A stretch of 64,000 nt of DNA. Origin: a virus. Shown here piece by piece: positions 17,609 through 56,293 of the stretch; position 1 is the stretch's first letter; each line of letters opens with the position of its first letter. The notes beneath the pieces were generated by a model. The model did no database searches and was not told where the DNA came from. It saw only the letters and a list, made by a program, of their open reading frames with translations. Both the position numbers and the translations under genes were made by a program. Where the stretch lies: positions 62,001 to 126,000 of the IMG/VR virus record IMGVR_UViG_3300021963_008220; one strand, given 5' to 3'.

Positions 17609-17933
17609 AGACGAGAACAAAAGATGGTACGCAGATCTACCTGAGTACATTGCACAAGGAGGAACTGTGGAAGAGTGCGAGATGGTTTCCGGTGCCGATG
17701 ATTGGCTAGACTACATCTCGGGAAACCGAGATGCCGTTGTTTTAACTTTATCTGATCAGAATTCGCTATCCGAGAAAATGCTTTTATATGAGAGCGACGA
17801 ATACGGTGCTACTTATATAGCACACACCTACAAGGAAGAAGACGTTAACCAAGTACTTTGGCTTTGTCCAGTTACTGTTTTTGTATTCGGTAACTATCCA
17901 AGCACAATTTACTATCACGTAATAAAGGAATGA
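17583..17933 (+). CDS. DUF6717-like protein (TTG start)
   Basis: 116 aa. Starts with TTG at 17583, overlapping the upstream gene by 26 nt. The N-terminal KVIRFYRDENKRWYADLPEY and following EMVSGADDWLD, AVVLTLSD are characteristic of the DUF6717 family as I remember it. Function unknown. Stop overlaps the RNA ligase ATG (ATGA), so probably translationally coupled to it. Confidence 0.6.
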   Translation: MRKVIRFYRDENKRWYADLPEYIAQGGTVEECEMVSGADDWLDYISGNRDAVVLTLSDQNSLSEKMLLYESDEYGATYIAHTYKEEDVNQVLWLCPVTVFVFGNYPSTIYYHVIKE

Positions 17934-19069
17934 AATACGATTTAAACATATTAAACGAATACATTGAGCGTGGACTTCTGATAAAGAATCCGCATCCAAC
18001 TTTGCCTCTGGATATCTATAACTATTCAAGAGATTGCCAGTTTAGTGAATCTTGGGATGAGATCACGTTAAATATGAGAGGTACTGTTCTGGATCGTGAA
18101 GGCAACATCGTGGCTAGGGTTTTTCCTAAGTTCTTTAACATGGAAGAACATAAGTCAGGAGAAATACCAAATGAGGATTTTGAGGTGTTTGAAAAGATGG
18201 ACGGATCCCTAGGAATTCTTTTTCACTACGAAGGGGAATGGCATTTAGCTACCCGTGGATCCTTTGCCTCAGACCAAGCAATAAAGGGTAAAGAGATTCT
18301 GAGCAGATACAGGTACGAAAAGTTGATCCCAGGATACACTTACCTTTTTGAAATCATCTATCCAGAAAACAGAATCGTTTGTGACTACGGGTACGAAGAT
18401 TTAGTTATGCTTGCTGTTATCGATAACAAGGACGGATACGAGCTTAGAATCCACGACAACGACATACATCTTGAAGGTATTAGATTCGCGAATCTCTACA
18501 ACAATCTAGGATTCAAGATTGTTAAGAAGTACGACGGGGTTCAAGATTATAAGCAACTGAAATCGATGATCAAGAACAATGCTGAAGGATTTGTAATCAA
18601 ATTCAAATCTGGATTCAGAATGAAGATCAAAGGGGAGGAGTACGTTAGGTTGCATAGGTTGCTAACCAACTTCTCAAACGTTGATATCTGGGAGCTGTTA
18701 AAAGACGGTAGAGATCTTGATGAATTTCTAGACAGAGTTCCTGATGAGTTTGACAAATGGGTTAAGAAAACTATTCGGGATTTACAATATCATAAATACG
18801 CAATCGAGGAGAGAGCAGGTAAGACCCACGATTATTTTAGATATGGTAAGTATAACGATCGTGAAACTGAACCTACTAAGAAAGAGTTTGCTGAGCATCT
18901 AGAATTTTGTAAGGTTGAACCAAGCATAAGATCTATATGTTTTGCAATATGGGACGGAAAGAACTACGATCACATCACCTGGAAGATAATAAAACCAAAA
19001 TATCAAAAACCATTTTGGAATAAAGAGGAAGAAATTCCAGCGGATTCAAAATGGCTTAAAAAAGATTAA
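17930..19069 (+). CDS. rnl1-like: T4 RNA ligase 1-like RNA ligase
   Basis: 379 aa. Nucleotidyltransferase motif I at residues 88-92 (EKMDGSLGI), the Lys89 expected to be adenylylated; TYLFEIIYPENRIV as motif IIIa-like; GFVIKFKSGFRMKIKGEEYV as motifs IV/V. T4 Rnl1 (374 aa) joins 5'-phosphate and 3'-OH RNA ends to repair anticodon-cleaved tRNA. The neighbouring phosphoesterase, P-loop kinase and cyclic-phosphate-processing receiver gene make the same job likely here. Central gene of the operon from 17129. Confidence 0.88.
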   Translation: MKYDLNILNEYIERGLLIKNPHPTLPLDIYNYSRDCQFSESWDEITLNMRGTVLDREGNIVARVFPKFFNMEEHKSGEIPNEDFEVFEKMDGSLGILFHYEGEWHLATRGSFASDQAIKGKEILSRYRYEKLIPGYTYLFEIIYPENRIVCDYGYEDLVMLAVIDNKDGYELRIHDNDIHLEGIRFANLYNNLGFKIVKKYDGVQDYKQLKSMIKNNAEGFVIKFKSGFRMKIKGEEYVRLHRLLTNFSNVDIWELLKDGRDLDEFLDRVPDEFDKWVKKTIRDLQYHKYAIEERAGKTHDYFRYGKYNDRETEPTKKEFAEHLEFCKVEPSIRSICFAIWDGKNYDHITWKIIKPKYQKPFWNKEEEIPADSKWLKKD

Positions 19070-26800: not shown

Positions 26801-27418
26801 ATGCCAACAGGATACACAGCAGGAGTGGTTGACGGAACCACCAAAACATTCAAAGATTTTGCAAAGATTTGCATGAGAGCTTTCGGGGCAGCGATTCATA
26901 TGAGAGACGAACCTCTGAGCAAGAAATATGAACACAGGGTTCCAGACGATTTCTATTACGAAAGAATTGAGGAAGCAAAGAAAAATCTTGCAGAACTCGA
27001 TACGCTACCTGACGAGCACTTCATTAAAGAGGAGCACGAGAAAATAAAGGATGATATCAGATACTACTCCGAAAAAATGAGAAAGGTTAAAGAAGCTAGA
27101 GAGAGATTAGATTCCTTGCTGGAAGAAACATCTGAGTGGGAACCACCAACCACAGATCATGTGGAATTTAAGAATTTTATGATTCAACAACTCACCGAAA
27201 CAATAAAATATGATGGTGACGTTGAATATTATGAAGGAGAAATTGAGCGTCTTTATAAAAAATTAGATACCCCTATTGATCTGGACTCTGTTAAGAAAGA
27301 TCTCAGAGAATCTTACGAAGCTAATCTAAATAGGAGTCAAAAAAGTCTTGATGAAGAAATCGAAAGATGTAAAAAATCCCACGATTGGGCGGATCAATTA
27401 TTAAAATCAATAGAATAA
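26801..27418 (+). CDS. Coiled-coil phage protein
   Basis: 205 aa from the ATG at 26801 (MPTGYTAGVVDGTTKTFKDF). The opening is shared by many phage proteins of unknown function. From residue 60 on, long charged helices dominate (KDDIRYYSEKMRKVKEARER). No catalytic motif. Two nt before the RNA ligase gene. Confidence 0.7.
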   Translation: MPTGYTAGVVDGTTKTFKDFAKICMRAFGAAIHMRDEPLSKKYEHRVPDDFYYERIEEAKKNLAELDTLPDEHFIKEEHEKIKDDIRYYSEKMRKVKEARERLDSLLEETSEWEPPTTDHVEFKNFMIQQLTETIKYDGDVEYYEGEIERLYKKLDTPIDLDSVKKDLRESYEANLNRSQKSLDEEIERCKKSHDWADQLLKSIE

Positions 27419-27420
27419 GA

Positions 27421-28509
27421 ATGGAAAGGAAATTAGCATCCATACAAAGAATCGGAAACATACTTCCCATCGAGGGAGCAGACGCAATAGAAATCGTAAC
27501 TGTTAACTCTTGGAAGGTTGTTTCTAAGAAGGGAGAATTTAATGAAGGGGATCTTTGTGTTTATTTCGAAATTGATTCGTTCTTACCTGTGAGAGAAGAA
27601 TTCGAATTTCTTAGAAAATCATCTTATAAAAAGATGGGTGATGTCGAAGGATTCAGATTAAAGACAATCAAATTAAGAGGCCAGGTTTCTCAAGGACTTT
27701 GTCTTCCACTCAATATATTGGAAGGTCCAGATGAATTCGTAATCGGTGTCAGCAAGCAGCCTTGGGGAGATCAGCTTCAGATTGGACCTTATGATGACGC
27801 TTTTGTTATCGAGGAAGGTGCTGATGTAACAGAATACCTAGGTGTTCTTAAGTACGAGCCACCAGTTCCAGCAGAACTTGCAGGAAAGGTTAAAGGTCTA
27901 TTCCCAGGTTTCATTAGAAAAACGGACGAGGAGAGAATCCAGAACATGACTAAGGAATACGACAGCATGCTTGATAAGCACTATTACGTAACAGAAAAAC
28001 TCGACGGAAGTTCAGCTACATATTATTTCAAGGATGGTGTATTTGGCGTGTGTTCAAGAAATTTGGAGCTATTAGAAACAGAGGGAAATACTTTCTGGAA
28101 GGTTGCTAGAGAATTGCTTATCGAAGAGAAATTAAGAAACATAGGGGAGAATTACTCTATCCAAGGTGAGCTTATCGGAGAAGGCGTTCAGGGTAACCCC
28201 TACAAAATTAAAGGTCAAACTGTATTGATCTTTAACATTTTCAACATCGACAAGCAAGAGTATCTTAGTCTTGATGACATGGTTCATTTTCTACACAAAA
28301 TAAATGTAGACGATAAGCCTTTGGAGCTTGTGCCTGTCGTTAATTACGATTACAAATTACCTCCAACAATCGAGGAGATCATCAGATATGCTGACGGTAA
28401 ATCAAGATTGAATGAGGGAACAGATAGAGAGGGTATAGTTATCAGAAATAGAGACAAGAGTATTTCTTTTAAAGCTATATCAAATACGTTTTTATTAAAA
28501 GAGAAGTAA
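27421..28509 (+). CDS. RNA ligase of the DRB0094 / DraRnl type
   Basis: 362 aa from the ATG at 27421. An N-terminal module (RKLASIQRIGNILPIEGADA) precedes the nucleotidyltransferase domain: motif I VTEKLDGSSATYYF, GVCSRNLELLE (motif III), YSIQGELIGEGVQGNPYK (IIIa) and EGIVIRNRDKSISFKAIS (IV/V). This order matches the Deinococcus RNA ligase family, which seals nicked RNA with 3'-OH and 5'-phosphate, including nicks templated by DNA. It is a second, different RNA ligase within 10 kb of the Rnl1-like one. Confidence 0.88.
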   Translation: MERKLASIQRIGNILPIEGADAIEIVTVNSWKVVSKKGEFNEGDLCVYFEIDSFLPVREEFEFLRKSSYKKMGDVEGFRLKTIKLRGQVSQGLCLPLNILEGPDEFVIGVSKQPWGDQLQIGPYDDAFVIEEGADVTEYLGVLKYEPPVPAELAGKVKGLFPGFIRKTDEERIQNMTKEYDSMLDKHYYVTEKLDGSSATYYFKDGVFGVCSRNLELLETEGNTFWKVARELLIEEKLRNIGENYSIQGELIGEGVQGNPYKIKGQTVLIFNIFNIDKQEYLSLDDMVHFLHKINVDDKPLELVPVVNYDYKLPPTIEEIIRYADGKSRLNEGTDREGIVIRNRDKSISFKAISNTFLLKEK

Positions 28510-31835: not shown

Positions 31836-32607
31836 GAATTGGCTGGCAGAGTCAGAAACTCCGGAGACTTATAACTTAACTCAGGAGGACATCGACTATA
31901 TTCAGAATAACTGTAAAGTATTAAGTGTTCTTAAAAAATCAGGATTATCGGAAGGAATATTCAAACACTTAAATAGTCGCGATTATTTCTATGCGAAGAT
32001 ATCCACAAAAGATCTTGAGAAATATATTAAGCTTCTAGAGAAGACAGAGATAGAGTTTGTTCCAAGCTACTTTGAAGAGACAAACAATATCATAATACAT
32101 TTTACCAGAGATCGCAAGCTGGAAATAGGAAAGCACACCTCAGACATATTAGACTCCGGATCATTATCCCACAGAGGAAATACTAGGGAATTTAAAGTAA
32201 AATGGAGTGCTGATAGCAGAGATCAGGTTCTAGAGGTAGTAAATCAATCTATCGAAGAGATCATAAAGGAAATCAAGAAGGTTAGAGTCATGATCCAGGT
32301 GGGTAAAAAAAATATTCCGGATTCTCTAAAACCAACGATTAAAAAGAGAATATTGGAAAATTATAGAAGTGTGGTTGACTCTTTCTTTTATGAAGGAAAA
32401 TTACCCGAATTGGAGGAAACAAATATTGGATGGGTCATAGCGGAAATCTACTCATCAGATAAAACTATACTAAATACAATTTCTGATATAGAGGACAGGG
32501 AAACCCTTGATTCCATCCTAAGATCGCTAGAAAAGATGGAGGAAACGGATATCGTTAAGATCGTGAAAGCATACGTTAGATCATCCAGAATATTAAAGCA
32601 TCTCTAA
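31810..32607 (+). CDS. Unknown protein with capsid-targeting-like N-terminus
   Basis: 265 aa. N-terminus MQNHLLKYKNWLAESETPE: Y-K-N-W-L-A-E followed by Ser is a strong match to the leader pattern. The rest is charged and mostly helical, no recognised domain. Starts inside the previous gene but has its own GATATATA 4 nt upstream. Stop shares a base with the next ATG. Confidence 0.65.
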   Translation: MQNHLLKYKNWLAESETPETYNLTQEDIDYIQNNCKVLSVLKKSGLSEGIFKHLNSRDYFYAKISTKDLEKYIKLLEKTEIEFVPSYFEETNNIIIHFTRDRKLEIGKHTSDILDSGSLSHRGNTREFKVKWSADSRDQVLEVVNQSIEEIIKEIKKVRVMIQVGKKNIPDSLKPTIKKRILENYRSVVDSFFYEGKLPELEETNIGWVIAEIYSSDKTILNTISDIEDRETLDSILRSLEKMEETDIVKIVKAYVRSSRILKHL

Positions 32608-32984
32608 TGAGGAACATTAAACTATATGAGCTTTGGGATAAGAAGGAAGATGATGGGGTGGAGATGCTGGTTAAAATTCTAGATGATCTAAAACCCACAA
32701 TAATATCTCACTTCAATGCAAGAACGATGGATGTGGATTTCGTTGAGGTTTCTGATCCCCAGCAATTTGTTCTTGAGTATTGGCCTAAATCATTCGACAA
32801 CAGAATACCACAAAGAATCTCATACTACATAGACGATATTGCGGAAACCCTTTCAGAAGAAATTGGGACTAAAATAGATTGGCAGTTCTCACCTAATGGT
32901 AACGTTCAAAGATTGGAATTCAACCTTGAGAATGAAATTGATCCTAAATACTTCAGCGCCAAAGACCGCATGAGGTTCTCTTAA
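32607..32984 (+). CDS. Unknown small protein, weak capsid-targeting-like N-terminus
   Basis: 125 aa, starts MRNIKLYELWDKKEDDGVEM. The I-K-L-Y-E-L-W opening matches the leader family but the L/I-x-E site is not clear. Acidic, no domain recognised. Cotranscribed with the 31810 gene (TAATG overlap). Confidence 0.6.
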   Translation: MRNIKLYELWDKKEDDGVEMLVKILDDLKPTIISHFNARTMDVDFVEVSDPQQFVLEYWPKSFDNRIPQRISYYIDDIAETLSEEIGTKIDWQFSPNGNVQRLEFNLENEIDPKYFSAKDRMRFS

Positions 32985-33007
32985 TCTCAAACAAATCCTC
33001 CGATTTA

Positions 33008-33039
33008 TTTTTTTACCTCGGAATCATTCCTTATTTTTG
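33008..33039 (+). promoter_or_regulatory. Class-A promoter (T7 ACCTCG, 11 nt, TATTTTTG)
   Basis: TCG ends at 33020, 11 nt, TATTTTTG at 33032-33039. Heads the operon from 33055. Confidence 0.7.
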
Positions 33040-35602: not shown

Positions 35603-36181
35603 ATGAAACTAATATTCTTAGATATAGACGGAGTTCTTAATTGCGAGAACGCTTACCGAAGAGGTGAGTGCCAATACCAGGAATGGATTTGGGAAGACGG
35701 TCGCAAGGATCACTATCAGCGATTTTGTAAACGCAGCAAAGATCTGCTAAATCAACTCATTGATGCAACTGAAGCGAAAATCGTTATCTCATCTAGTTGG
35801 AGAACAAGTGGTATTGAATTTATGAAGAAAGTTTGGGAGCTTGAAGATATGCACGGTGAAATAATAGGGATCACCCCGTCAATGAGAACTTCGGGAATAA
35901 GTATTCCACGAGGAATGGAAATTCATTACTACTTAGAGCATGACTTGGGGTTCCGTCATATCAACTGGTCAGCTGACGAGCAACAAAAACTAATGGACAA
36001 GTCGGGCGTAGAAAACTACATTATCATTGATGATGACAGTGACATGCTATACGGGCAGCGTAATCACTTCGTCCACGTTCTACCTTCACCCAGAAACAAA
36101 GAAGGATTTAACCAGAAGTATTACAAAGAAGCTTTATCTAAATTAAGTAAAACAGTAACGGATCTAAATTATAAAAAATGA
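35603..36181 (+). CDS. HAD-domain protein
   Basis: 192 aa. KLIFLDIDGVLNCENAYRRG (motif I), AKIVISSSWRTSG (motif II) and NYIIIDDDSDML (motif IV). This subgroup of HAD proteins with the F-L-D-I-D-G-V-L-N opening occurs in phages and near RNA-repair genes. Substrate unknown; could be a polynucleotide 3'-phosphatase. Stop overlaps the Thg1-like ATG, so coupled expression is likely. Confidence 0.75.
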   Translation: MKLIFLDIDGVLNCENAYRRGECQYQEWIWEDGRKDHYQRFCKRSKDLLNQLIDATEAKIVISSSWRTSGIEFMKKVWELEDMHGEIIGITPSMRTSGISIPRGMEIHYYLEHDLGFRHINWSADEQQKLMDKSGVENYIIIDDDSDMLYGQRNHFVHVLPSPRNKEGFNQKYYKEALSKLSKTVTDLNYKK

Positions 36182-37026
36182 AAGACGCACTAGGCGATAG
36201 AATGAAAGATTTCTACGAAGACAGGACAAGAACAAAACTTCCGAGAAGAAGTTACACAATAATCAGAATCGACGGAAAGGCTTTCCATACTTACACAAGA
36301 GGTTTAGAAAGACCTTTTGATATGTGGCTCATGGAAGACATGGACGCAACTGCAGCTTACCTCTGTAAGAATATTCAGGGTGCTAAATTTGCATACGTTC
36401 AGTCAGATGAGATCTCAATTCTAATTACAGATTTTGATGATCTAGGAACACACGCTTGGTTTGATAACAATCTACAAAAGATGGCTTCAGTTTCTGCTTC
36501 AATGGCAACTGCCAGATTCAACCAACTTAGATTAATTAGAGAAGCTAAGAACGGGGGAGACTTAGTTAAATCACAGATCTCACAATTTCCGATGGCTATG
36601 TTTGACGCCAGGGTATTTCAAATTCCATTTGCAGCTGAGGTTGAAAACTATTTCATCTGGAGACAGCAAGACGCTACAAGAAACTCTATCAGTTCAGCTG
36701 CACAAAGTGTTTATAGCTCTAAAGAATTACACGGGGTTAAGAGTGACGGTATGCAGGAAATGCTCTTCCAAAAGGGGATCAACTGGAACGATTACAGTCC
36801 AAGAGAGAAAAGAGGATCTGTTATCAGAAAGGTAGAGAAACAATTTGTGAGGAGAGAAACAATGGCAGAGGTAACCGATACTACAGTAGTCATTCCTGAA
36901 TCTGCTACCTATAAAAGAAATGTTTGGGAAGCAGATCCAGAAACACCAATCTTTACACAGAACAGGGAATATCTAAGATCTCTCTTTCCTAATTACGAAC
37001 AACAAAAAGAGGAAGAAAATGTTTAG
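36178..37026 (+). CDS. thg1-like: tRNA(His) guanylyltransferase / Thg1-like 3'-5' polymerase
   Basis: 282 aa. Canonical motifs: YTIIRIDGKAFHTYTRGL (first metal Asp), AKFAYVQSDEISILITDF (second metal Asp), then KMASVSASMATARFN and a C-terminal YSPREKRGSVIRK-type basic segment. Bacterial Thg1-like proteins add nucleotides to 5' ends in the 3'-5' direction and can repair 5'-truncated tRNAs; family knowledge. Here it follows a HAD phosphatase and complements the two RNA ligases. Ends TAG, overlapping the next gene. Confidence 0.9.
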   Translation: MKDALGDRMKDFYEDRTRTKLPRRSYTIIRIDGKAFHTYTRGLERPFDMWLMEDMDATAAYLCKNIQGAKFAYVQSDEISILITDFDDLGTHAWFDNNLQKMASVSASMATARFNQLRLIREAKNGGDLVKSQISQFPMAMFDARVFQIPFAAEVENYFIWRQQDATRNSISSAAQSVYSSKELHGVKSDGMQEMLFQKGINWNDYSPREKRGSVIRKVEKQFVRRETMAEVTDTTVVIPESATYKRNVWEADPETPIFTQNREYLRSLFPNYEQQKEEENV

Positions 37027-49713: not shown

Positions 49714-50397
49714 ATGAACTACAGATCAGAATTTGAAAAGTACGCTAGAAGCGAACACGGAATCTCCTCACTGAGATTGGATTACTTCGATAAAAGAATC
49801 CAATCGTCAATGACGCCTTATATCTTAGAGGAAAGAGAAATGAGAGTTACTCAGATGGATATCTTCTCACGTTTAATGAGAGATCGCATTCTTTGGGTTG
49901 CTGGAGGAGTTGATGATGACATGTCGACTGTGGTTCAGGCTCAGCTGATGTTTTTAGATTCTGTTGACGACAGAGACATCACTATGCACATCGATTCACC
50001 AGGTGGATCTGTTAAGTCCGGTCTATCTATGATTGATGTTATGGAATACATCGCATGTGACATCAGAACAGTAAATACCGGAATGGCAGCATCAATGGGA
50101 TCTGTTTTATTGGGAGCAGGTACTAAAGGTAAAAGAAGCTCTTTGAGATTCAGTAAGGTGATGCTTCACCAATCAAGCGGAGGATTTAGAGGAAATATCC
50201 AGGATGCAAAGATTGATATGCAAGAGTGGGAAGAGGTTAACAAGATTCTTTTCGATCTTCTTGGAAGTTACTGCGGTAAGAAACCAGAGCAGGTCATGAA
50301 AGATGCAACTAGAGATTTCTGGTTAAGTGCAGAAGAGGCAGTAAAATACGGAATCATTGATGAAGTAGTTCTCAAGAAGGAGAAAAAAAGAAAATAA
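49714..50397 (+). CDS. clpP: ClpP-like serine protease
   Basis: 227 aa. ClpP fold: VQAQLMFLDSVDDRDITMHI, DSPGGSVKSGLSMID, catalytic Ser127 in NTGMAASMGSVLLG, His152 in KVMLHQSSGGFRG and Asp in the region of KDATRDFWLSAEEAVKYGII. All triad positions are present. Could act as a phage protease with host Clp ATPases, or as a diverged maturation protease. Its stop touches the smpB start (TAATG), so the two are cotranslated. Confidence 0.9.
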   Translation: MNYRSEFEKYARSEHGISSLRLDYFDKRIQSSMTPYILEEREMRVTQMDIFSRLMRDRILWVAGGVDDDMSTVVQAQLMFLDSVDDRDITMHIDSPGGSVKSGLSMIDVMEYIACDIRTVNTGMAASMGSVLLGAGTKGKRSSLRFSKVMLHQSSGGFRGNIQDAKIDMQEWEEVNKILFDLLGSYCGKKPEQVMKDATRDFWLSAEEAVKYGIIDEVVLKKEKKRK

Positions 50398-50822
50398 TGC
50401 AATCCATAGTTAACCGTAAGGCCAGATTTGAATACACGTTTATTGACACCTACACTGCGGGGATATGCCTAATTGGCTCCGAAGTTAAGGCTATCAAAGA
50501 CGGCAGGGCTTCTATGGTTGACACATATTGCATTTTTAATAAAGAAGAACTTTGGGTTAAGGGACTAGGGATAACTCCTGGTCCTGGCTCATTTCAGCAC
50601 GAAGCACTCAGGGACAAGAAACTTCTACTGAGAAAGAAAGAGCTAAAAAAGCTGAGATCGTCTTTGGATAAAGGTCTTACGATAATACCTGTTAAGATAT
50701 TCGTAAACGAAAAGAATAGGTTAAAGATGGAAATAGCTTTAGCTAGAGGTAAGAAGCTTTATGACAAAAGGGAATCTATTAAGGAAAGGGATATAGAGAG
50801 GGACATGAGAAGGAACGATTAA
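50397..50822 (+). CDS. smpB: SsrA-binding protein SmpB
   Basis: 141 aa. NRKARFEYTFIDTYTAGICL, GSEVKAIKDGRASMVDTYC and the C-terminal RGKKLYDKRESIKERD match SmpB (usual 140-160 aa). SmpB brings alanyl-tmRNA to stalled ribosomes; ssrA-tagged proteins go to ClpXP, and here clpP is the gene directly upstream. I see no canonical tmRNA in the window, so it would use the host tmRNA or one encoded elsewhere. Convergent 4-bp overlap with the next minus gene. Confidence 0.92.
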   Translation: MQSIVNRKARFEYTFIDTYTAGICLIGSEVKAIKDGRASMVDTYCIFNKEELWVKGLGITPGPGSFQHEALRDKKLLLRKKELKKLRSSLDKGLTIIPVKIFVNEKNRLKMEIALARGKKLYDKRESIKERDIERDMRRND

Positions 50823-56222: not shown

Positions 56223-56293
56223 AGTCAGGTGGCGGAATTGGTAGACGCTAGTTATTTATACGAAAGTTACAGGTTCGAATCCTGTCCTGACTA
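56223..56293 (+). tRNA. tRNA-like gene, Leu-type 5' half, no clear anticodon stem
   Basis: Acceptor AGTCAGG/CCTGACT, a D arm typical of class II (Leu) tRNAs (GGCGGAATTGGTAGACGC), and T arm ACAGG-TTCGAAT-CCTGT are intact. Only 20 nt lie between D and T stems (23 in a class I tRNA, more in a Leu tRNA) and no anticodon stem can be formed. Either a degraded tRNA or a functional RNA with a missing arm. Confidence 0.5.

What the first reader, a model, noticed from the sequence alone, without database searches (positions are those of the whole stretch)
49714..50822. clpP-smpB gene pair: phage control of trans-translation and proteolysis
ClpP with intact triad and SmpB are adjacent with a TAATG overlap. 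SmpB rescues ribosomes and tags nascent chains that ClpXP degrades, so the pair links rescue and protease. A phage copy could keep ribosomes available during mRNA cleavage or redirect tagging.
Basis: partly seen in the sequence, partly recalled or inferred. Interest (0 to 1): 0.7.

Follow-up and report, generated by a model that had tools for sequence, protein, structure and literature searches.

The report
Phage ribosome-rescue kit with private tag
This giant-phage fragment really carries neighbouring genes for a ribosome-rescue protein (SmpB) and a ClpP-family protease, and the same phage also encodes the partner RNA (tmRNA) with an unusually long, phage-specific tag, so such phages may run their own version of the cell's system for freeing stuck ribosomes and marking the broken proteins.

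Summary
In detail: clpP (49714-50397) and smpB (50397-50822) overlap by one base, TAATG. The missing partner exists: the same 134-kb virus record encodes a full-length tmRNA outside the window (G000:C1:32570-33011; 55.5 bits, cut-off 47). It keeps the G3-U70 alanine identity pair. Trans-translation genes in huge phages are already published.

New here is the tag. Placed by the bacterial frame rule, these tmRNAs encode 21-34-residue tags (window phage GKKSVWDVINAFGTPVNEVEYAYAA). The Bacteroidota tmRNAs examined encode 7-10 (..YALAA/..YAMAA). 121 phage loci gave 51 distinct tags, with an overall excess of synonymous changes. ARAGORN found 3 of 36 phage tmRNAs and shortened this one to EVEYAYAA.

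Large relatives also carry a ClpC-like unfoldase, usually without an N-domain, beside tmRNA and/or smpB in one lineage. Against a simple ClpXP link, this ClpP type keeps its triad but has lost the conserved ClpX/ClpA-docking tyrosine (His in 80 of 80). The fragment itself shows no unfoldase. An S77 prohead protease in relatives argues against ClpP being the head protease.

Verdict: phage trans-translation is well supported; a private tag-to-Clp route is plausible but unproven. New variant of a known kind.

The parts
49714..50397 (+). clpP: ClpP-family (S14) peptidase, 227 aa, with a leader of about 33 aa before the ClpP core
   Evidence: Pfam CLP_protease 5.2e-57; PDB ClpP matches from residue 24-34 on, best 7.3e-48
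49987..49989 (+). codon of His92, at the position of the docking-cleft tyrosine of standard ClpP (DITMHIDSPGG against ..LYINSPGG)
   Evidence: alignment to solved ClpPs; His in 80 of 80 related phage ClpPs; that this tyrosine docks unfoldases is recalled
50092..50094 (+). codon of catalytic Ser127 (GMAASM)
   Evidence: Ser in 80 of 80
50167..50169 (+). codon of catalytic His152
   Evidence: His in 80 of 80
50314..50316 (+). codon of catalytic Asp201
   Evidence: Asp in 80 of 80
50395..50399 (+). TAATG overlap of clpP stop and smpB start
   Evidence: sequence
50397..50822 (+). smpB: tmRNA-binding protein, 141 aa. Its tmRNA lies in the same record but outside the window (G000:C1:32570-33011, + strand; locus L001:1501-1942)
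   Evidence: Pfam SmpB 1.4e-46; PDB SmpB 2.1e-34; tmRNA
50763..50819 (+). SmpB C-terminal tail DKRESIKERDIERDMRRND (in bacteria the part that enters the decoding centre)
   Evidence: alignment; role recalled

Best explanation
The pair belongs to a phage-encoded trans-translation pathway. SHOWN BY SEQUENCE: the phage carries SmpB with its C-tail, a tmRNA with the alanine-charging pair and a pseudoknot 1 plus frame-setting context as in bacteria, and a ClpP-family peptidase. INFERRED: during infection, when mRNAs are cut by phage or host nucleases, host AlaRS charges the phage tmRNA, phage SmpB brings it to stalled ribosomes, and the ribosome adds a phage-specific tag (window phage: Ala + GKKSVWDVINAFGTPVNEVEYAYAA) instead of the host's short tag, freeing the ribosome. 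INFERRED, WEAKER: the long tag is a degron read by a phage-controlled Clp machine (in large relatives a ClpC-like unfoldase, with a phage ClpP) rather than, or besides, host ClpXP; co-transcription of clpP with smpB would match tagging to degradation capacity.
For: tmRNA in the same genome, over cut-off in 4 of 9 SmpB records, and a full-length match in 12 of 12 contigs of at least 200 kb among the 46 given to (11 over cut-off). Pseudoknot-1 stem covaries (U-A/A-U) in 29 of 29 distinct sequences. Resume context with A at -4 in 121 of 121 phage loci and UAAAY|GGC as in host tmRNAs. Long tag: open for 21-34 codons in 59 of 59 distinct sequences, the other frames open over the same span in 0 and 3 of 59; synonymous excess overall (138 of 316 changes; expected about 0.21-0.26 by group). 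G3-U70 in 28 of 29. Of 25 tmRNA-selected records of at least 150 kb: SmpB 20, ClpP 22, Clp AAA+ 16, all three 12. ClpC within a few kb of tmRNA and/or smpB in one lineage. clpP-smpB pairing kept at 51% SmpB identity.
Against: This ClpP type has lost the docking tyrosine (80 of 80), so it may not bind the usual unfoldases. No unfoldase is in the 134-kb fragment itself, nor in 9 of 25 large tmRNA records. The codon test is not significant for the window phage's own tag family (p 0.15) or for one other group (p 0.22). In that own family a second in-frame UANNN context exists where ARAGORN starts. The ClpP-SmpB pairing holds in only 10 of 80 SmpB loci. Lak phages have short, 10-residue tags. No activity has been measured.
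Confidence: 0.55

Rival explanations
1. Rescue without destruction: phage SmpB-tmRNA frees ribosomes, but the altered tag escapes host ClpXP or routes the products elsewhere; clpP is an unrelated neighbour.
For: Tags end mostly in VAA, NVA, VVA, IAA, YAA and the like; only 1 of 117 ends in LAA and 5 in MAA. Docking tyrosine lost in this ClpP. Unfoldase not found in 9 of 25 large records. Pairing with clpP is lineage-specific.
Against: Nearly all tags still end in a small or hydrophobic residue plus Ala, as degrons do; AYAA ends occur on 11 and AVAA on 38 of 596 tags in ARAGORN's table. ClpC sits near tmRNA/smpB in one lineage.
Confidence: 0.25
2. ClpP is a head-maturation or other morphogenetic protease, and smpB is next to it by chance of gene order.
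For: Best PHROG matches of ClpP are head maturation proteases (phrog_94, 2.2e-35). A 'virion structural protein' (phrog_1383) lies 1.7 kb upstream. ClpP is far more conserved (75-100% in the best 80) than SmpB.
Against: A separate S77 (T4 gp21-like) prohead protease matches over cut-off in 11 of 13 virus records and 2 of 6 named phage records tested. Upstream structural neighbour retained in 4 of 80 ClpP loci only. ClpP matches cellular ClpP with the N-terminal segment colinear. clpP-smpB linkage survives 51% SmpB divergence.
Confidence: 0.2
3. The tag is short and ordinary (EVEYAYAA, as ARAGORN calls it); the upstream open frame is RNA structure.
For: ARAGORN call; a second UANNN|GAG context lies in frame in the VWD family; codon test p 0.15 in that family.
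Against: The upstream GGC site has the bacterial spacing (11-12 nt after pseudoknot 1 in 21 of 29; E. coli 11 nt, PMC2481249) and the GGC codon used by host tmRNAs. Other tag families are equally long. Conserved residues vary at third positions (Pro15, Ala24, Ala25, Asp7).
Confidence: 0.1

Closest known systems
Bacterial tmRNA-SmpB trans-translation (Bacteroidota type)
   Same: SmpB fold and tail, tRNA-like end with G3-U70, pseudoknot 1, UAAAY|GGC resume context
   Different: tag 21-34 residues, with lineage-specific sequence, instead of 7-10 in the 26 host tmRNAs read
tmRNA and SmpB of huge phages (Al-Shayeb et al. 2020, PMC7162821; passages seen)
   Same: same gene set in the same kind of phage; the paper already names tmRNA and SmpB
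   Different: the passages seen do not mention the tag or Clp proteins (terms ClpP, Clp protease: 0 occurrences); tmRNAs there were found with ARAGORN, which found only 3 of 36 here
Mycobacteriophage Bxz1 and Bacillus phage G tmRNA tags (ARAGORN's table)
   Same: phage-encoded tags unlike the usual ones; Bxz1's is 25 residues long
   Different: unrelated sequences; no Clp partner examined here
Mollicute long ssrA tags read by Lon (Mesoplasma florum; PMC9382460, passages seen)
   Same: long tag paired with a protease other than ClpXP
   Different: cellular; reader is Lon; sequences unrelated
Bacterial ClpC unfoldase
   Same: two AAA domains, UVR motif, D2-small domain; PDB ClpC 3.6e-227; [IVM]GF loop in 14 of 17 phage proteins
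   Different: no N-terminal adaptor domain in the G007 protein and most others of that length; found in relatives, not in the window record

Membership tests
tmRNA-SmpB trans-translation system | SmpB domain | tested here: met
   Pfam 1.4e-46, PDB 2.1e-34
tmRNA-SmpB trans-translation system | basic SmpB C-terminal tail (DKRxxIKxRD) | tested here: met
   met by sequence only
tmRNA-SmpB trans-translation system | tmRNA gene in the same genome | tested here: met
   RF00023, 55.5 bits against cut-off 47
tmRNA-SmpB trans-translation system | G3-U70 pair for alanine charging | tested here: met
   window phage and 28 of 29 distinct phage tmRNAs; the meaning of the pair is recalled
tmRNA-SmpB trans-translation system | resume codon and tag frame | tested here: met
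   A at -4 in 121 of 121 and open tag frame
tmRNA-SmpB trans-translation system | ribosome rescue activity | not testable with these tools
   needs an experiment
Standard AAA+-partnered ClpP | Ser-His-Asp triad | tested here: met
   80 of 80
Standard AAA+-partnered ClpP | docking-cleft tyrosine (E. coli Tyr62 position, recalled) | tested here: not met
   His in 80 of 80; a second, Tyr-bearing ClpP type exists in other huge phages. Hence filed as ClpP-family (S14), not as a standard ClpXP-type ClpP
Standard AAA+-partnered ClpP | 14-mer assembly with an unfoldase | not testable with these tools
   needs biochemistry
Phage head-maturation protease | sits in the capsid/portal gene block and is the only candidate | tested here: not met
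   neighbours are SmpB, an AAA_28 protein, unknowns and one 'virion structural protein'; S77 prohead protease elsewhere in relatives, none found in G000 itself

The most novel reading that the evidence does not exclude
Huge phages of Bacteroidota run an orthogonal tag-and-destroy channel. Their own tmRNA-SmpB writes a private 21-34-residue degron, and a phage ClpC-like unfoldase without an N-domain, working with a re-engineered ClpP whose docking site has diverged, reads it. Truncated proteins of the infected cell are thus handled under phage control instead of by host ClpXP and its adaptors.
Probability: 0.3. Interest if true: 0.82.

Novelty: new variant of a known kind. Interest (0 to 1): 0.62.

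Why it matters
It would turn a listed curiosity (phage tmRNA and SmpB) into a testable pathway: a virus that changes the peptide mark written on stalled proteins. It supplies 51 distinct tag sequences in several families for study as new degrons, shows that a common tmRNA finder misses or shortens them, and pairs naturally with the RNA-repair genes (two RNA ligases, a tRNA-His guanylyltransferase) in the same window, suggesting a general answer to RNA-cleaving antiphage defence.

Tried and rejected
Rejected: (1) 'no tmRNA, so SmpB acts alone': tmRNA found. (2) ARAGORN's tag EVEYAYAA taken at face value: the bacterial frame rule and spacing point 17 codons upstream. (3) clpP-smpB as a universal module: 10 of 80 and 9 of 80 only. 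(4) phage-collection SmpB hits of Staphylococcus, Listeria, Escherichia and Klebsiella as independent phage smpB genes: several lie at the very ends of their records and may be host flanks of prophages (not followed up). (5) A tmRNA in the two 634-642-kb phages LR745206 and LR756502: no full-length match over cut-off; unresolved. The 735-kb phage LR756501 has only a weak 21.1-bit match (L033) with a tag-like frame; its acceptor ends did not fit.

Weak points of my own tests. The resume codon was chosen by a script that scored A at -3/-2 and a G codon, so A at -4 is only partly independent. In frame 0 the absence of stops is by construction; the contrast with the other frames over the same span is the test. 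Substitutions were counted on minimum spanning trees with a one-step syn/nonsyn rule and uncorrected p values: VWD family p 0.15, GLR-22 p 0.22, GLR-21 2e-9, GES 7e-5, EDA-25 7e-5, EDA-23 4e-4. The 117 tags leave out 4 loci (L355, L365, L366, L386) that the script misread; one search adds them (23 aa). 3 of 124 loci ended too soon to read. One search got 46 of the 80 SmpB loci (mostly long contigs; the 217,893-bp contig of L048 was left out, and turned up with a tmRNA). Some large contigs are near copies (G012, G013, G014). Host tags come from 30 of 80 loci, picked for SmpB likeness; 27 had tmRNA, 26 a readable short tag: 21 by ARAGORN and 5 by hand. Docking motifs were printed for 13 of 18 ClpP stretches; of the other five, four (G025, G028, G033, G092) belong to a diverged ClpP group and G045 looks window-like at its triad, but its docking site was not printed. 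No structure prediction was run.

Literature searches that found no paper on phage tmRNA tags or phage ClpP with SmpB: (open-access library only).

Full report
OBSERVATION. Pfam gives CLP_protease 5.2e-57 and SmpB 1.4e-46. The window is bases 62001-126000 of a 134,030-base virus record, so the genome is probably incomplete.

THE PARTNER RNA. Rfam's tmRNA model matches the same record at 32570-33011, outside the window, with 55.5 bits (cut-off 47), about 79 kb from smpB. Related SmpB contigs have it too: 4 of 9 records (the other five are under 30 kb), and all 12 contigs of 200 kb or more among the 46 given to, 11 of them over the cut-off (28 of 46 overall). Three Lak phages and the 636-kb phage LR756504 also pass; three other huge phages do not. 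The acceptor stem carries G3-U70 in 28 of 29 distinct tmRNAs.

THE TAG. ARAGORN reads EVEYAYAA, but it finds only 3 of 36 phage tmRNAs at all. In E. coli an A four bases before the resume codon sets the frame, and 11 nt separate pseudoknot 1 from the coding part (PMC2481249, passages seen). In Bacteroidota tmRNAs the context is mostly UAAAY|GGC followed by a nine-residue tag (21 of 27 loci by ARAGORN; 5 more of 7-10 residues by hand; one cut off). In phage tmRNAs the same UAAAY|GGC context is followed by a much longer frame: window phage GKKSVWDVINAFGTPVNEVEYAYAA; its relative G007 GKKSVWDAINSFGTPVTEVEYAYAA. Two patterns from the pseudoknot-1 region, not the tag, brought 48 and 76 loci. 121 of 124 could be read: 59 distinct DNA tags, 51 distinct peptides, 21-34 residues. 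They fall into families (VWD..INxFGxPV, GNVLxKMxxxGLIR, GESYIDADGNI..FEDAM.F..). Over the same span the two other frames are open in 0 and 3 of 59. Changes fall 101/55/160 on codon positions 1/2/3; 138 of 316 are synonymous, against an expected 0.21-0.26 by group; four groups are significant, while the window phage's VWD family (p 0.15) and the 22-residue GLR group (p 0.22) are not. Pseudoknot-1 stem bases covary in 29 of 29. Lak phages have 10-residue tags. Long tags are not unheard of: in ARAGORN's table of 596 distinct tags most of those of 20 or more residues are from Mollicutes, Chlamydiae and other cells, and mycobacteriophage Bxz1 has one of 25.

THE PROTEASE SIDE. The window ClpP keeps Ser127, His152 and Asp201 in 80 of 80 relatives, but the docking tyrosine of standard ClpPs is His92 in 80 of 80. 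Other huge phages have a second, Tyr-bearing ClpP (W01-W03, W05, W06, G047, G085). Clp unfoldase C-domains are in 14 of 19 phage records; in G007, the closest large relative (ClpP 91%, SmpB 90%), it is a 691-residue ClpC-like protein with no N-domain. The [IVM]GF loop that binds ClpP (role recalled) is present in 14 of 17 phage ClpC-type proteins, SGF in 2, and absent in the 735-kb phage, which also has no ClpP match. In G018, G025, G026, G029, G030 and G033 the unfoldase gene lies about 2-7 kb from both tmRNA and smpB; in G028 and G040 it lies about 3 kb from the tmRNA only. Neither G000 nor its fragmentary relative G006 shows one. Of 25 tmRNA-selected records of at least 150 kb, 20 have SmpB, 22 ClpP, 16 the unfoldase and 12 all three.

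IS CLPP A HEAD PROTEASE? PHROGs name it so by likeness, and a virion structural protein lies 1.7 kb upstream. But a separate S77 prohead protease passes Pfam's cut-off in 13 of 19 records (not in G000 or G006, both fragments), and the upstream structural gene is kept in only 4 of 80 ClpP loci.

HOW IT PROBABLY WORKS. Rescue of ribosomes by phage SmpB and tmRNA: likely (about 0.8). A long phage-specific tag: likely (about 0.85 for the group, somewhat less for the window phage by itself). Reading of that tag by a phage Clp machine: about 0.35-0.4. Whether clpP-smpB pairing serves this is suggestive: it survives divergence of SmpB to 51% and insertion of a 283-aa gene between them, but most phages lack it. 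The same window encodes two RNA ligases, a phosphoesterase and a tRNA-His guanylyltransferase, so RNA damage during infection may be the common theme (inference).

KNOWN AND NEW. Huge-phage tmRNA and SmpB are in print (PMC7162821, passages seen); phages with ssrA are listed in PMC4131195 (passages), and 402 of 18,146 phage genomes are counted in PMC9004378 (passages). ClpX and tmRNA in a Sinorhizobium jumbo phage are in PMC11242549 (passages). I found nothing on extended phage tags or on ClpP/ClpC as their readers. The closest SmpB relatives in cells are from Bacteroidota almost throughout, which suggests such hosts.

Noticed in passing
L010:2951-3356 (-), IMGVR_UViG_3300020497_000005: A GOLLD RNA (RF02032, 320.6 bits) lies right beside smpB and the tmRNA in this related phage contig.
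   Followed up: no
L315:301-2508 (-), Prevotella phage Lak-A2: The ClpX-like gene is 735 aa against 418 aa in Lak-B5, with an intein-like insertion in the middle.
   Followed up: no
L118:4679-5530, contig IMGVR_UViG_3300027770_000025: A 283-aa ORF resembling a nucleotide-sugar dehydrogenase (by eye) is inserted between clpP and smpB.
   Followed up: partly
window 17930-19069, 27385-28509, 36178-37026: Two RNA ligases and a tRNA-His guanylyltransferase by PHROG match: an RNA-repair set in the same window.
   Followed up: no
L110/L117, contig IMGVR_UViG_3300032334_002267: ClpP is 93% identical to the window's but the adjacent SmpB only 51%; SmpB may have been replaced in place or evolve much faster.
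   Followed up: partly
G025, G028, G033, G092 (L483, L484, L488, L490): In phages with the GLR tag family the same ClpP group has a diverged His region (THM or THF instead of LHQ) and, where read, Gln at the docking site.
   Followed up: partly
window 56223-56293 (+): Rfam reports a second tRNA (43.2 bits) that ARAGORN does not.
   Followed up: no
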